Below are positions 1 to 3,973 of a DNA stretch of 64,000 nucleotides, piece by piece. The position numbers and the translations under genes were made by a program. This DNA is from Sphingomonas sp. IW22. Lineage in GTDB: Bacteria; Pseudomonadota; Alphaproteobacteria; Sphingomonadales; Sphingomonadaceae. The stretch covers positions 124,001 through 188,000 of the forward strand of contig NZ_JBGGWB010000003.1 in NCBI RefSeq assembly GCF_041321155.1, read 5' to 3'. Under the pieces are notes generated by a model. The model was not told the DNA's origin. It ran no database searches and saw only the letters and a program-made list of their open reading frames with translations. Within the stretch, counting starts at the first letter, position 1. Each line of letters starts with the position of its first letter.

Positions 1-1156
1 CGAGGGCGCCGTGCCCAAGCAGCGCGACCGGCGGCAGCGGGTCAACCCCGGCCACCCAGCGCATGAGCGATGGTCGTGGCGGATAGTCGCCGACGATCGT
101 CTCGATGCGGGTGTCGGCGTCAAGGATGTCCTTGTCGAGATCCTGCGAGATCAGGAAGGCCCGCAGTTCGAGGCTCCGGGCGGCGGGGTCGTCGGAATAG
201 CCGAAGAAGGCGCTCATGATCGGCGCCGGTCGCCACACTCCTATGATGACCACCATCGCCTTCCCGCCGAGCGGCGGGCGGTGGCACCGAAAGTCTACGT
301 CGTTTTTCCGCAGTTGCAGGATTGTGGAGACGAAGGCAGCGTCGACGCCGATCGCCTTCATGCCCTCCAGCAGCTCGCCGCCGGCCCGCCAGGTCTCGAA
401 CAGCGGGTCACGTTCGACGGCCGAGGGTTCGCGCCATACGAACACCCACGGGATCGCGTGCCGCTCACCGCCGAAGTTCCCGTTGTGATGGCCGAGCGCC
501 TTGATGACGTCATGGGGCTGGAGGATCTGCGAGAAGACGGACACCTGCTTGCGCTCGTCGTCATCGAAGTTGATCGCAACGCCGACCGCGCTTCCCGCCC
601 CGGGGTTGGCGAGCGCATGCTCCTGGAAGACGCTCGGCTCGATCTGGCCCATTCGCAGCTTCTGACCGACGCCGAACGGCACCGGCTCCCAGCCATCCAT
701 CATCAGGGTGCCCGTCTTCGCGTCGCGCAGGAAGTCACGCAGGCGGGTCATGATGGCCTCTATGCCGGCGCGCTCGTAGATCGGCTGTATGCCGCCGAGT
801 GCCAGGCAGGGTGCTGCACGGCACCCGGACTCGCCCGAGCAGAGATGGCCGATCTTGCGCGGGAAGTCCTCGCGGTCGCAGAGCACATTGTAGGGCGCGG
901 CGCGACCGAAGGCGCGGCCCTCACGGTAAACGAAATGGATGCGTTCCACCTCGCGCACGTCGGCTGCCGGTTCCTCGACCGTCGGCTCGGTCATGATGTC
1001 GAAGGTCAGTATCTCGCCTTCGTCCAGGCGGCGTAGCTCGATTGACGACGCGACGACACCAGCGGACTGCGAGATGCGCGCGATCTCCAGCAGCTGGCTA
1101 AGGTCCGGCTCCGCGACGATCTCGCCATCGACGGGTTCGTCGCTGCCGTCAGCCAT
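1..1156 (-). CDS. E2-like/E1-like (UBC-ThiF) fusion protein, C-terminus beyond window
   Basis: About 385 codons are open from the ATG at 1156 to the window edge. Residues 85-160 resemble prokaryotic E2 domains: a His-Leu-Cys (about 104-106), further cysteines at about 112 and 117, then a helix with a Trp-Glu-Pro tail (about 156-158). By alignment with the usual CL pattern, Cys117 (APCLAL) is the best catalytic candidate. The last visible residues read VALLGHGAL, which matches the GxGxxG nucleotide loop that opens an E1/ThiF adenylyltransferase domain, so the protein is probably an E2-E1 fusion that activates and transfers a ubiquitin-like modifier. The start overlaps the stop of the upstream MBL gene by 8 bp, which indicates translational coupling. 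The Ubl and JAB peptidase genes expected of such systems would lie to the left and are not visible. The E1 call rests on one motif plus domain order. Confidence 0.68.
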   Translation of the reverse strand, partial: MADGSDEPVDGEIVAEPDLSQLLEIARISQSAGVVASSIELRRLDEGEILTFDIMTEPTVEEPAADVREVERIHFVYREGRAFGRAAPYNVLCDREDFPRKIGHLCSGESGCRAAPCLALGGIQPIYERAGIEAIMTRLRDFLRDAKTGTLMMDGWEPVPFGVGQKLRMGQIEPSVFQEHALANPGAGSAVGVAINFDDDERKQVSVFSQILQPHDVIKALGHHNGNFGGERHAIPWVFVWREPSAVERDPLFETWRAGGELLEGMKAIGVDAAFVSTILQLRKNDVDFRCHRPPLGGKAMVVIIGVWRPAPIMSAFFGYSDDPAARSLELRAFLISQDLDKDILDADTRIETIVGDYPPRPSLMRWVAGVDPLPPVALLGHGAL

Positions 1157-2282
1157 AAGAGCCGCCCCCTCCGACCGCCGCGCCGCCGCCCCCGAGACCG
1201 ACGGTTGCCGGCACCTTTGCCGGCGCGAGTGACGGGCCGCCGCTGGTCAGGTTGAAGACGACATGGGCCGGAAGGTCCGAGGCTCCGTTCCCGCCGGTGC
1301 AGCGGAAGCGGCCCTCCACCGATCCGGTGATCTCGCCGCCGTTGGCGAGGATGCGCAGATAGCGGCGCTTGGCGTGCCATGACGGCGGCGTGTCGCCGCC
1401 CCGCACCACGCGCCGGCTGCTCGACACGACGTATCCGTTGCCGCGCTGCTCGCCGAGTGCCTTCAACGCCTCGGCCGACTCGGTGAACTCCTCGTCCTTA
1501 CAGCCGCCGTTGAGCACGCGTCCGATCGACCGGCGCGAGCAGTGATGCGGCGCCAGCAGGACGTGCCACGCTAGCTGGTCGGGGGTCTTGCGGTGAACCT
1601 CCTTTTCCAGCCTCTCCAGCACCTCGACCGAGGTGTCGCCGCAGGTTAGGATCAGATTCTCGCCGCCGAATCGCCGGATTGTCCACTGGATTACGAGGCT
1701 GGTGGGGTTCGAGGATGCGGGAGGGCAGCCCTCGGCGGTCTTGGGGATATTCCATTCTGCGGGTGTCGGCGCGAGAAGACGCCATTGGAAGTCGGTGGCG
1801 ATAGCCCCGTTCGTGAACCGACTGGTATCCATCACTTTGAGCCGGTTGCCATCGCGCTCGCCCGCGGCGGTGCCCTTGAGCGCGTTGCGCCGCTTGATCT
1901 CGTCGGTGATGGGCTTCGACTGTTCGGTGACGTAGTGGGGATTTAGGCCGTACGGGGTGCACCAGATCTCGTCCACGATGATCTTGGGATCAGAGTCTTC
2001 GGGATCGTTGTCCCAGCTCTCGGGCGAGCCGCAGTGGAAGATCTCGCAAAAGCCGCCAACATGGTCTTTGTCGGGGTGGGTGGAGACGAACACGTCTAGG
2101 TGATCGTTCCCGCATGCAGCGCGGATGTCCTTAGCGAAATCGGGCGCCTCGTCGTCATTCTCGTCCTGCGCCCTCCCGGACCGATAGTGGATGTCGATCA
2201 TCACCACCTTGTCGTGCGCCTCGATTAGAATGCTGTCGCCGCAGCCGGATGCGAAGCTGGTGAGCCTGTAATCGCCGCGCAT
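1149..2282 (-). CDS. MBL-fold metallohydrolase (ComEC-like), 377 aa
   Basis: This is a metallo-beta-lactamase fold protein. The N-terminal strand pair with GCGDSILIE and the aspartate in VMIDIH are typical of the ComEC/Rec2-like subgroup. The metal motif HPDKDH sits at residues 69-74, followed by GGF. Further on are LTCGDTS and APHHCSRRS, which supply the remaining metal ligands, so the active site looks complete. No signal peptide or membrane segment is seen, so it should be cytoplasmic. It lies between a second MBL gene upstream and the E2/E1-like gene, which overlaps its 3' end. Substrate is unknown: nuclease, phosphodiesterase or peptidase-like hydrolysis are all possible for the fold. 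The C-terminus ends in a Gly/Ala/Ser-rich tail, which is unusual and may be a flexible linker or a modification site. The start is the ATG at 2282, the first in the frame. Confidence 0.8.
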   Translation of the reverse strand: MRGDYRLTSFASGCGDSILIEAHDKVVMIDIHYRSGRAQDENDDEAPDFAKDIRAACGNDHLDVFVSTHPDKDHVGGFCEIFHCGSPESWDNDPEDSDPKIIVDEIWCTPYGLNPHYVTEQSKPITDEIKRRNALKGTAAGERDGNRLKVMDTSRFTNGAIATDFQWRLLAPTPAEWNIPKTAEGCPPASSNPTSLVIQWTIRRFGGENLILTCGDTSVEVLERLEKEVHRKTPDQLAWHVLLAPHHCSRRSIGRVLNGGCKDEEFTESAEALKALGEQRGNGYVVSSSRRVVRGGDTPPSWHAKRRYLRILANGGEITGSVEGRFRCTGGNGASDLPAHVVFNLTSGGPSLAPAKVPATVGLGGGGAAVGGGGSYG

Positions 2283-2581
2283 CCCCGATCCTCCCTGCCG
2301 CTATCCGGAACGATATGGGAACATCATACACTACATTCAGGATGTGGTATATAGGGTGTTAGGACTTACCCACATGTTGAGGCCTGTCAGGCGTGTGAGT
2401 GGGCGCAGATCCAGTTCCGCCGAGGCCTGCCTGCGTCCAAGCCGGCTAACCGAGCACCAGCTGCTAGGGCCAAATACGCATGTGGCCCCGGGATCGCGAC
2501 CATCACGCCTTCGTCTTCTCGGCTGAGATCTGGATATCCCAGGCGGGCCCGTTCTCGATCGATCGCCATGGCCGCTCGCAG
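2283..2581 (-). other. Gap between the two MBL genes with unresolved small ORFs
   Basis: Two short minus-strand frames are open here. One has 82 codons from an ATG at 2585 that overlaps the stop of the upstream MBL gene in an ATGA arrangement. The other has 60 codons from an ATG at 2569. Neither product is recognised and neither ends in a Gly-Gly like a ubiquitin-like modifier. The ATGA coupling makes the 82-codon frame the better candidate for translation. The gap may equally be a decayed gene or an untranslated spacer. Confidence 0.25.
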
Positions 2582-3973
2582 TCATACCTTCGGGCTCACC
2601 AGGAACGTCTCATCGAAACCTGTCGCTTCGGGCGAGCGGACGCGGTGAAACGTACGTTCCATCGTTCTGACGGCAGCCTCAAGGGACCAGTGCGGATGCT
2701 CCCAATCATGGATCGGGTCGGCAGCTGCTACCCAATGGTCGGCGTCGCTTACCAGGTGGTCGGGGTCGCTGTTGTTGATTGACCCGTGATGCGGGAAGAC
2801 AAAGGTCGATGTGTGGTCGACGTCAGCGCCATAGCCTTTTCCGAACGCGGCCCGCTCGCCCGGTTCGATAAGATGAGTGTCTCCCGTGCCGAGCCAGCCG
2901 ATCTTGGTGAGGTCGTGCGCTTCCATCATCGGTTCCAACGCCATCGCGTCGAAGTCGGCCGGGGTGACCAGCCCCGAGTAGAGGCACAGCGATGTCAGGT
3001 TCTTGTCGCCAAACGCGGTGCGATACAGTCGGGCGAGCTTGGTCCGCTTCGTGGTCACCATCTGTTTGCGGACATTGCCGTCGGTGATGCGGGAGTCGAA
3101 AGTCCCCCTCTTCCAGTTGAAAATCGTCTCTACACCGGCACGAAAGGCGGCGATCGCCGCGGGATCGGCCGGGCGCACCCAGGGCACTAGCTTCCACAGA
3201 AGAGACCAGGTGGGATCGTGGATGACCGCCGCAGCGTGGCGCACCTCGAGCACCTCGCTGCCGTTCTCGAAGCCGATGCTCGCAAGCTCGAGCGGCCGCT
3301 GCGGATCGTCGGGGTAAGCGGGTTTGAGGTCGACACGGACCGGGCCATCTCGGTCACCAGCTGCCTTGGGATCGAAGTCGCCGTCCGGGTCGGGCTTCGT
3401 TCCTGGGCCGCGCTCCCCTTCGCCGCCGTCCCCGCGTACGAAGATGATCCGCCGGGGTCCGAATGCCGCGAGCGTCGCGGTCGGCTCAAAGACCATGTTG
3501 ACGAAGAAGGTGTCGATATGGCCGCCGAAGCTCTCGGTCGATGCAGTCGCCCTCGCGAGCGCGACGATCCGCTCGTCCATGTCGACGAAGGGAAGGATGA
3601 TCGTGTCGACGTTGAACCCGTCCGATGCCCGGAGTAGACGTGGCGTTCCGCAGATGTGGTCGCGGTCAAAATGCGAAAGCACAAGGATGTTGAGCTGCCG
3701 GTCCGGCCGGCTGTCGAGCAGGTTGTCGATCTCGCGGTAGACATGCTTCTTCGGCTCGGACCCGCAGTCGTATACGTAGAGGATCTCGGCATTGGTGAAA
3801 CGCGCCGCCCGATGTCCCGGCAGGTCATTCCAAGGATGTGCGGTTAGGAATCGCAGGCCGCCGACATGAAACCCGCCTTGCCCCACCGGCATCTGGCGGC
3901 GCACGTGATAGAACGAGCGCGGATCATCGCCGGCGTCTGGGTCGAAGAAGTGGATCGTGTCTTGTTGCCGCAT
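2582..3973 (-). CDS. MBL-fold metallohydrolase, 463 aa
   Basis: This is the first recognisable gene of the minus-strand operon. Residues 65-72 (YVYDCGSE) and the metal motif HFDRDH at residues 101-106 mark an MBL fold. Near the C-terminus GTGDTHL and PHHGSINNSD provide the later ligands, so the hydrolase site looks intact. An N-terminal stretch with VGQGGF precedes the fold, a layout I associate with larger MBL proteins of conflict-system operons. The protein is longer than the downstream MBL paralogue and differs outside the motifs, so the pair is not a simple tandem duplication. No membrane segment is seen. Co-transcription with the E2/E1-like gene suggests a role in the same conjugation or defence system, possibly as an effector nuclease, but the substrate is not deducible from sequence. 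Confidence 0.8.
   Translation of the reverse strand: MRQQDTIHFFDPDAGDDPRSFYHVRRQMPVGQGGFHVGGLRFLTAHPWNDLPGHRAARFTNAEILYVYDCGSEPKKHVYREIDNLLDSRPDRQLNILVLSHFDRDHICGTPRLLRASDGFNVDTIILPFVDMDERIVALARATASTESFGGHIDTFFVNMVFEPTATLAAFGPRRIIFVRGDGGEGERGPGTKPDPDGDFDPKAAGDRDGPVRVDLKPAYPDDPQRPLELASIGFENGSEVLEVRHAAAVIHDPTWSLLWKLVPWVRPADPAAIAAFRAGVETIFNWKRGTFDSRITDGNVRKQMVTTKRTKLARLYRTAFGDKNLTSLCLYSGLVTPADFDAMALEPMMEAHDLTKIGWLGTGDTHLIEPGERAAFGKGYGADVDHTSTFVFPHHGSINNSDPDHLVSDADHWVAAADPIHDWEHPHWSLEAAVRTMERTFHRVRSPEATGFDETFLVSPKV

What the first reader, a model, noticed from the sequence alone, without database searches (positions are those of the whole stretch)
1..3973. MBL-MBL-E2/E1 operon: candidate ubiquitin-like conjugation or defence system
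Two distinct metallo-beta-lactamase proteins, both with complete metal motifs, are coupled on the minus strand to a protein that joins an E2-like domain to the start of an E1/ThiF domain. Comparative surveys of prokaryotic ubiquitin-like systems have described E1, E2 and JAB gene sets, and I recall some with MBL neighbours, but two MBL proteins leading an E2-E1 fusion is an unusual composition. The operon sits at the edge of an accessory region, as anti-phage systems often do.
Basis: partly seen in the sequence, partly recalled or inferred. Interest (0 to 1): 0.78.

Follow-up and report, generated by a model that had tools for sequence, protein, structure and literature searches.

The report
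6A-MBL operon with conjugation-tailed nuclease
This is a bacterial ubiquitin-like gene set of a kind already predicted in 2006 and now named as an anti-phage system; its core enzyme carries a strongly conserved glycine tail, which suggests that the enzyme itself, rather than a small ubiquitin, is what gets attached to other proteins.

Summary
The E2/E1 protein runs off the window; whole, it is a 758-aa E2-E1-JAB protein. It and the adjacent MBL gene (1149-2282) pass NCBIfam's cut-offs for the anti-phage '6A-MBL' system, operon type '6a' of Iyer et al. 2006. Left of the window follow a 204-aa predicted membrane protein and another MBL protein. These four genes form a 5.1-kb cassette shared with related Sphingomonas genomes at different sites; the upstream MBL gene (2582-3973) lies outside it. 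New to me: the core MBL ends in a disordered linker closed by a GGxYG-type tail, in 115 of 116 near-full-length homologues (111 exact); 26 carry 1-5 extra residues after it. Of 21 divergent loci, 19 end in other motifs closed by Gly. This resembles a matured ubiquitin-like tail and the C-terminal Gly/Ala of CBASS cyclases. Most likely Cap2_3 conjugates the ComEC-like MBL through that Gly, and the fused JAB trims and removes it. The third slot holds an exchangeable membrane effector: TM protein or patatin, once fused to Cap2_3. No experiment was done.

The parts
1149..2282 (-). MBL-B, core ComEC-like metallo-beta-lactamase-fold protein, 377 aa; NCBIfam 6A-MBL_enzyme; disordered C-terminal tail ending GGGGSYG
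1152..1214 (-). C-terminal 21 residues of MBL-B (357-377): low-confidence, unstructured linker closed by the near-invariant G-G-x-Y-G; proposed conjugation tail
1..1156 (-). N-terminal half of Cap2_3; the whole gene runs 1120 bases beyond the left edge (L002:10880-13156, 758 aa): E2 (Cys117), E1/ThiF (GxGxxG 381-386, Cys558), JAB (E646, H710, H712, S720, D723)
   Evidence: (356.3 bits vs cut-off 320)
1..1 (-). OUTSIDE THE WINDOW, left of base 1 (placed at 1 only because the form takes no negative numbers): TM protein, 204 aa, L002:10266-10880 (= window -1734 to -1120); four transmembrane segments predicted by a simple hydropathy script; its ATG overlaps the Cap2_3 stop
1..1 (-). OUTSIDE THE WINDOW, left of base 1 (placed at 1 only because the form takes no negative numbers): MBL-C, 295 aa, L002:9347-10234 (= window -2653 to -1766); PADLOC PDC-M48B; first metal-motif His is Asn
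   Evidence: (E 4.2e-62)
2283..2400 (-). upstream region of MBL-B with short blocks conserved in L005, L006 and L062; inferred own promoter/operator of the cassette (the consensus promoter scan itself was at chance level)
2582..3973 (-). MBL-A, 463 aa ComEC-like MBL protein; neighbour, judged not part of the cassette

Best explanation
A chromosomal 6A-MBL system. Inferred mechanism: the JAB domain of Cap2_3 removes any residues after the terminal Gly of MBL-B, although in this genome MBL-B already ends in Gly. The E1 domain adenylates that Gly and passes it through Cys558 to the E2 Cys117. MBL-B is thus attached to a target, and the JAB domain can take it off again. The ComEC-like metallo-enzyme (predicted nuclease or phosphodiesterase) therefore serves as its own ubiquitin-like modifier, occupying the place of the CD-NTase in type II CBASS. 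On infection the primed MBL-B triggers a membrane-acting effector, here the TM protein with its partner MBL-C, in other lineages a patatin-like lipase, giving abortive defence. Shown here: gene content, conserved cassette, conserved catalytic residues, conserved tail, effector swapping. Inferred: the conjugation itself, its targets, the trigger, the chemistry of MBL-B and the effector step.
For: Both family models pass curated cut-offs. E2 Cys is present in 20 of 20 sequences that have the region; E1 Cys and the JAB ligands in 21 of 21. A GGxYG-type tail is in 115 of 116 near-full-length homologues (111 exact GGxYG, 2 GGSYA, 1 GGGDG, 1 ending GGGGS), with 0.07-0.25 bits of entropy at G373, G374, Y376 and G377 against 1.2-3.2 bits at 351-370; 26 have 1-5 residues after it. 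Of 21 divergent loci (18-32% identity to MBL-B for the 11 compared), 19 end in xHG, APRAG, SRAG, VGFG or STYG with 0-6 variable residues after the Gly. AlphaFold places 357-377 below pLDDT 50 beside an ordered core. CBASS cyclases conjugated by Cap2 likewise end in a conserved Gly/Ala, not conserved in operons without Cap2/Cap3. Patatin or TM genes follow the core; one contig fuses E2-E1-JAB to patatin. dN/dS is 0.05-0.21 for the four genes.
Against: No experiment shows conjugation or defence for this locus. MBL-B passes its cut-off by only 7 bits, and Cap2_3 is only 18-22% identical to the non-Sphingomonas 6A proteins aligned. No target or E3 is known. Two of 21 divergent loci (L048, L049) lack the tail; their ORFs look damaged or misread. 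One of 116 close homologues (P0068) also lacks it; its sequence stops early. The window's MBL-B has no extension to trim. The control is weak: 31 of 120 MBL-A homologues and 4 of 13 MBL-C sequences also end in Gly, though no MBL-A homologue has GGxYG near its end. No ComEC-like MBL of this very family without a Cap2_3 partner was found to compare. Nothing shows how a hydrolase would switch on a patatin that in CBASS answers to a cyclic nucleotide. The E2 fold itself was not modelled (server busy).
Confidence: 0.72

Rival explanations
1. The Gly tail is a docking or release peptide for Cap2_3, and the E1-E2 part conjugates some unlinked ubiquitin-like protein or small molecule; MBL-B is a substrate or partner but not the modifier.
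For: No isopeptide product has been seen. Most E1/E2 systems use a beta-grasp modifier (recalled), and none was recognised in the cassette.
Against: The invariance sits at the very last Gly with variable residues behind it in several lineages, the pattern expected for trimming. The JAB residues of the fused domain are invariant. The CBASS precedent has a non-beta-grasp modifier.
Confidence: 0.13
2. The tail is conserved at DNA level because it holds the ribosome-binding site and overlapping start codon of Cap2_3.
For: In the window the final YG codons overlap the Cap2_3 ATG and a GGAGG lies just upstream.
Against: Codons change while the peptide stays, and the GGAGG is absent in L006 and L062. 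The distance from MBL-B to Cap2_3 varies from -8 to +74 nt with the terminal Gly kept (the larger negative values printed for L043 and L044 come from over-extended ORF starts, and L048 is left out). Extensions displace the overlap.
Confidence: 0.03
3. One reading: MBL-A and MBL-B together lead the E2-E1 gene and both belong to one system.
For: Same strand, 299 nt apart, both ComEC-like by motif and weak PADLOC matches.
Against: The shared cassette ends 113 nt (L004/L005), 126 nt (L006) and 41 nt (L062) upstream of the MBL-B start. The two MBL-A relatives found in 396 genomes of the order lie near restriction genes, and those on three opened plasmids lie beside unrelated genes. Shared longest-contig lengths in the listed hits: 11 between MBL-B and TM, 0 between MBL-A and TM, 2 short ones between MBL-A and MBL-B (lists capped at 120).
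Confidence: 0.05
4. A regulatory or housekeeping conjugation system rather than phage defence.
For: Defence was not tested here; the NCBIfam label is an annotation whose paper I could not find.
Against: Sparse distribution (5 of 199 family genomes over the Cap2_3 cut-off, own included), different flanks at each of the compared sites, plasmids, many conjugative, patatin/TM effectors, IrrE or WYL regulators beside four members.
Confidence: 0.07

Closest known systems
Operon type 6a of Iyer, Burroughs and Aravind 2006 (PMC1779556), named anti-phage 6A-MBL in NCBIfam (NF058523, NF058524)
   Same: One polypeptide E2-E1-JAB plus a specialised MBL gene beside it; both curated cut-offs passed.
   Different: Divergent branch (18-22% identity of Cap2_3 to the non-Sphingomonas members aligned) with a TM protein and a second MBL appended; the passages of the 2006 paper that I read do not mention the Gly tail or the effector slot.
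Type II CBASS (CD-NTase, Cap2, Cap3, effector)
   Same: E1-E2 and JAB chemistry by family, C-terminal Gly (rarely Ala) on the central enzyme, patatin effectors in some members (CBASS CapV is a patatin: recalled), mobile loci.
   Different: No CD-NTase among the cassette genes; an MBL is in its place; Cap2 and Cap3 are one protein.
PADLOC PDC-M48 (TM protein + MBL)
   Same: MBL-C matches PDC-M48B at 4.2e-62 and is preceded by a predicted four-TM protein.
   Different: The window's TM protein matches no PADLOC profile; here the pair sits behind a 6A core.
ComEC MBL domain / RNase J-type MBL nucleases
   Different: Soluble protein without ComEC's membrane domains (recalled), with an added Gly tail and an E2-E1-JAB partner.

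Membership tests
6a / 6A-MBL | E2, E1 and JAB in one polypeptide in that order | tested here: met
   Pfam Prok-E2_A 65-159, ThiF 377-474, Prok-JAB 630-748, all over cut-off; catalytic residues conserved
6a / 6A-MBL | adjacent metallo-beta-lactamase gene | tested here: met
   MBL-B overlaps Cap2_3 by 8 nt; NF058524 227.1 vs 220 bits; order conserved
6a / 6A-MBL | NCBIfam equivalog cut-off for Cap2_3 | tested here: met
   356.3 vs 320 bits
6a / 6A-MBL | protects against phage | not testable with these tools
   needs an infection assay
type II CBASS | CD-NTase (cyclase) gene | tested here: not met
   none of the four cassette genes or MBL-A lists a nucleotidyltransferase family in Pfam or NCBIfam at E <= 1; cassette ends mapped
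type II CBASS | central enzyme ends in conserved Gly or Ala | tested here: met
   (before any extension); compared with the passage on 1,583 cGAS proteins in PMC10097602
Bil / BilABCD ubiquitin-like system (definition recalled) | separate beta-grasp ubiquitin-like protein and stand-alone E2 | tested here: not met
   E2 is fused to E1-JAB; no Ubl family match, and the four genes overlap or lie 31 nt apart, leaving no room for another gene
PDC-M48 | MBL subunit M48B | tested here: met
   PDLC04674 4.2e-62
PDC-M48 | small TM subunit M48A | tested here: inconclusive
   a predicted four-TM protein is in place but lists no PADLOC match at E <= 1; M48A models do match the TM partners in L066 and L067
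Avs1 (AVAST type 1) MBL Avs1a | NCBIfam Avs1a cut-off 420 | tested here: not met
   26.5 bits for MBL-B, 20.5 for MBL-A, 9.5 for MBL-C

The most novel reading that the evidence does not exclude
A metallo-nuclease is the ubiquitin of this system. MBL-B, a ComEC-like enzyme with no beta-grasp fold, is matured, activated and covalently attached through a dedicated C-terminal Gly tail by its fused E2-E1-JAB partner. Around this core sits an exchangeable membrane-effector slot (TM protein, TM plus a second MBL, patatin, or patatin fused to the conjugase), so the same logic as type II CBASS has been rebuilt with a hydrolase in place of the cyclase.
Probability: 0.62. Interest if true: 0.75.

Novelty: new variant of a known kind. 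Interest (0 to 1): 0.52.

Why it matters
The 6a operons were predicted in 2006 as a triple-module protein beside an MBL, without a ubiquitin-like gene in the operon as the passages I read describe it. A conserved, trimmable Gly tail on the MBL would name the modifier and make the question testable with one mutation. It would also show that enzymes other than nucleotide cyclases are used as bacterial protein modifiers, and would link a widespread, often plasmid-borne system (222 plasmid records match MBL-B) to membrane-acting effectors.

Tried and rejected
Rejected: MBL-A as part of the unit. Rejected: the tail as a by-product of gene overlap. Rejected: a CD-NTase or a separate Ubl in the cassette. 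Led nowhere: a paper for '6A-MBL' (none found in a library of open-licence papers only); promoter/terminator scan at chance level. Left out of the tail counts: viral loci L084/L085, an E2-E1-JAB-like gene without a recognisable MBL-B in the held stretch; L087, L090 and L091, partial; L045, which has no recognised MBL-B and a Cap2_3 with an in-frame stop; the close Sphingomonas copies L004-L006 and L062, which share the window's GGGGSYG tail. L048 and L049 are kept and told as exceptions. My tail pattern missed L075 (ends GHG) and had only a placeholder for L089; both were judged by eye. The family search with NF058524 at E <= 1e-40 missed the window's own gene, probably because its match is split in two stretches. 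The dN/dS row for MBL-C against L062 was out of frame and is not used. In A1 the aligner spread the terminal Gly over several columns, so tails were compared by pattern and by eye. Cap2_3 was never modelled, so its E2 domain rests on the Pfam profile and the conserved Cys; the match to the Cap2 chain 7to3 covers linker and E1 but starts after the E2 Cys.
Full report
Observation. On the minus strand the window holds MBL-A (2582-3973, 463 aa), MBL-B (1149-2282, 377 aa) and the start of an E2/E1 protein (2-1156). The window lies at contig C3:124001-188000 of a 4.0-Mb genome. Its closest 6A relatives with names are Sphingomonas, so the host is probably a Sphingomonas (inference).

Left of the window. 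L002 covers C3:112001-130000; window base x is L002 12000+x. The E2/E1 protein is 758 aa (L002:10880-13156) with Prok-E2_A, ThiF and Prok-JAB domains in that order, all over Pfam cut-offs. It is followed by a 204-aa protein with four TM segments by a simple hydropathy script (L002:10266-10880) and a 295-aa MBL protein, MBL-C (L002:9347-10234). Next comes an esterase-like gene outside the conserved block.

Identity. NCBIfam (June 2026) gives 6A-MBL_cap2_3 at 356.3 bits (cut-off 320) for the whole 758-aa protein and 6A-MBL_enzyme at 227.1 bits (cut-off 220) for MBL-B. In passages of Iyer et al. 2006 (PMC1779556) that I read, row 6a is a triple-module E2-E1-JAB protein, and 'in most operons, these are almost always next to a metallo-beta-lactamase'. 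No paper naming 6A-MBL was found in the held library, which lacks most subscription papers and preprints. PADLOC relates MBL-B weakly to RTasMBL (3.5e-10) and LmuA (7.2e-9).

Unit boundaries. Against L004/L005 (99.97% identical to each other where they overlap, counted once), L006 and L062, blastn finds one block each, at 85-87% identity. It runs from window -2740 to 2395 (L004/L005), -2740 to 2408 (L006) and -2637 to 2323 (L062), and nothing else in the 24 kb of this contig matches those four loci. The block is MBL-B, Cap2_3, TM, MBL-C and a short upstream stretch with conserved elements. Among themselves L005, L006 and L062 also share only this block, so the cassette sits in different flanks at all four sites and presumably moves. 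In Sphingomonas sp. 8AM only a piece of Cap2_3 was found (L007). dN/dS is 0.05-0.06 (MBL-B), 0.09-0.17 (Cap2_3), 0.11-0.21 (TM) and 0.09-0.14 (MBL-C, two comparisons). MBL-A is not in the block. In 396 genomes of the order MBL-A matched 3 at E <= 1e-20 (own included), and the two others have no 6A genes in the stretches read but restriction genes near it. The three rhizobial plasmids with MBL-A relatives that I opened, of 18 plasmid records matched, show none beside it either.

Catalytic state. In 21 Cap2_3 sequences the E1 Cys558, the GxGxxG glycines, D405, R416, K428 and the JAB residues E646, H710, H712, S720 and D723 are invariant. The E2 Cys117 is present in 20 of 20 that have the region (L045 is cut by a stop). 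A profile of the family matches the PDB chain of Cap2 (7to3, 2e-25) and, with its JAB part, a chain named 'Peptidase' (9ild, 3.9e-18).

The tail. Of 120 listed MBL-B homologues (190 found), 4 short ones were dropped. Of the remaining 116, 115 have a GG-x-Y-G-type end: 72 GGGYG, 34 GGSYG, 3 GGTYG, 1 GGEYG, 1 GGAYG, 2 GGSYA, 1 GGGDG and 1 ending GGGGS; the exception, P0068, stops early. After the motif 89 have nothing, 5 one, 14 two, 5 three and 2 five residues. Entropy is 0.07, 0.07, 0.20 and 0.25 bits at G373, G374, Y376 and G377, while 351-370 lie at 1.2-3.2 bits. Of 21 divergent loci from other genomes, plasmids and viral contigs, 19 end in APRAG (followed by nothing, R, RHR, RWR, VSNQ, IINQ or LGEE), SRAG, xHG (followed by nothing, S or CGSDLA), VGFG (followed by D or QVLSER) or STYG (followed by SK). 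The two exceptions are L048 and L049, whose ORFs look damaged or misread. The AlphaFold model has an ordered core (mean pLDDT 89.3, pTM 0.89) and a disordered 357-377. A disordered end with a near-invariant last Gly and a variable extension is the pattern of a ubiquitin-like tail. Codon changes that keep the peptide, absence of the GGAGG in L006 and L062, and gene gaps from -8 to +74 nt argue against a DNA-level cause. As controls, 0 of 120 MBL-A homologues have GGxYG in their last 12 residues, though 31 end in Gly; of 13 MBL-C sequences 4 end in Gly. These controls are weak, since they are other families.

Precedent. Passages of Jenson et al. 2023 (PMC10097602) report that Cap2 forms a thioester with the C-terminal Gly of cGAS and conjugates it to targets, and that the Gly/Ala is conserved only where full-length Cap2 and Cap3 are present. 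Passages of PMC11153139 describe conjugation of a cyclase to PspA and scarless removal by Cap3.

Effector slot. After Cap2_3 come: a TM protein plus MBL-C (window, L004/L005, L006, L062, L046, L065, L071); a patatin plus MBL-C (L042, L045; L045 has a broken Cap2_3 and no recognised MBL-B); a patatin (L043, L044, L047, L077, L082); a TM protein (L072, L073, L074, and L075 on the opposite strand); a TM protein then patatin (L078). In L083 a four-TM protein lies before MBL-B. No evident effector follows Cap2_3 in E. coli SE11 (L076), and none was identified in L048, L086, L087 or L088 (L088 ends there). In L089 E2-E1-JAB and patatin are one ORF, directly after an MBL-B. TM plus MBL-C pairs also occur without 6A genes in the stretches read (L063, L064, L066-L068); the TM proteins of L066 and L067 match PADLOC PDC-M48A, and MBL-C proteins match PDC-M48B. 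Regulator genes of the IrrE (L046, L073) and WYL (L042, L076) kinds lie beside four members. The other upstream neighbours tested gave no such match: L005 and L006 (two each) and L065 no family, L062 a cation transporter, L044 a sigma factor. That CBASS loci carry such regulators is recalled.

Distribution. Cap2_3 over the cut-off: 5 of 199 family genomes, own included. MBL_enzyme over the cut-off: 4 of 385 class genomes (the window's gene was missed at that threshold). MBL-B matches 222 plasmid records, 130 of them predicted conjugative. A close match to the E. coli SE11 pair is in 31 of 5426 E. coli genomes, 29 of them over 80% of its length.

Verdict. The finding is real but belongs to a known kind; it is a divergent member with an extended effector module. 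The conserved conjugation tail on the MBL is the part worth an experiment.

Noticed in passing
L089:587-4618 (viral contig): One ORF joins E2, E1, JAB and a patatin-like lipase, right after an MBL-B gene ending VGFG-D; the first ~205 residues of the ORF as listed overlap that MBL-B gene in another frame.
   Followed up: partly
L063, L064, L066, L067, L068: Pairs of a small TM protein and MBL-C without 6A genes in the stretches read; the TM proteins of L063 and L064 resemble Csx27 weakly, those of L066 and L067 PADLOC PDC-M48A.
   Followed up: partly
L002:9347-10234 (MBL-C, left of the window): In 13 of 13 MBL-C sequences aligned the first metal-motif His is Asn (NxDxDH), while DxDH, GD and HHGR remain.
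   Followed up: no
window 2582-3973 (MBL-A): Solo ComEC-like MBL family with an N-terminal RRQMPVGQGGFH-type stretch in many homologues; two relatives lie near restriction genes.
   Followed up: partly
L007:10001-10842: Only a piece of Cap2_3 (residues 287-567) was found in Sphingomonas sp. 8AM, probably a relict of the cassette.
   Followed up: no
L086:7259-8344: A second MBL protein lies on the opposite strand directly after an MBL-B/Cap2_3 pair in a viral contig.
   Followed up: no
L084, L085: E2-E1-JAB-like gene followed by an ORF with four predicted TM segments but with no recognisable MBL-B in the held stretch.
   Followed up: partly
L002:3482-4336: ORF that by eye looks like an IS6-type transposase relict about 5 kb beyond the cassette; not tested.
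   Followed up: no
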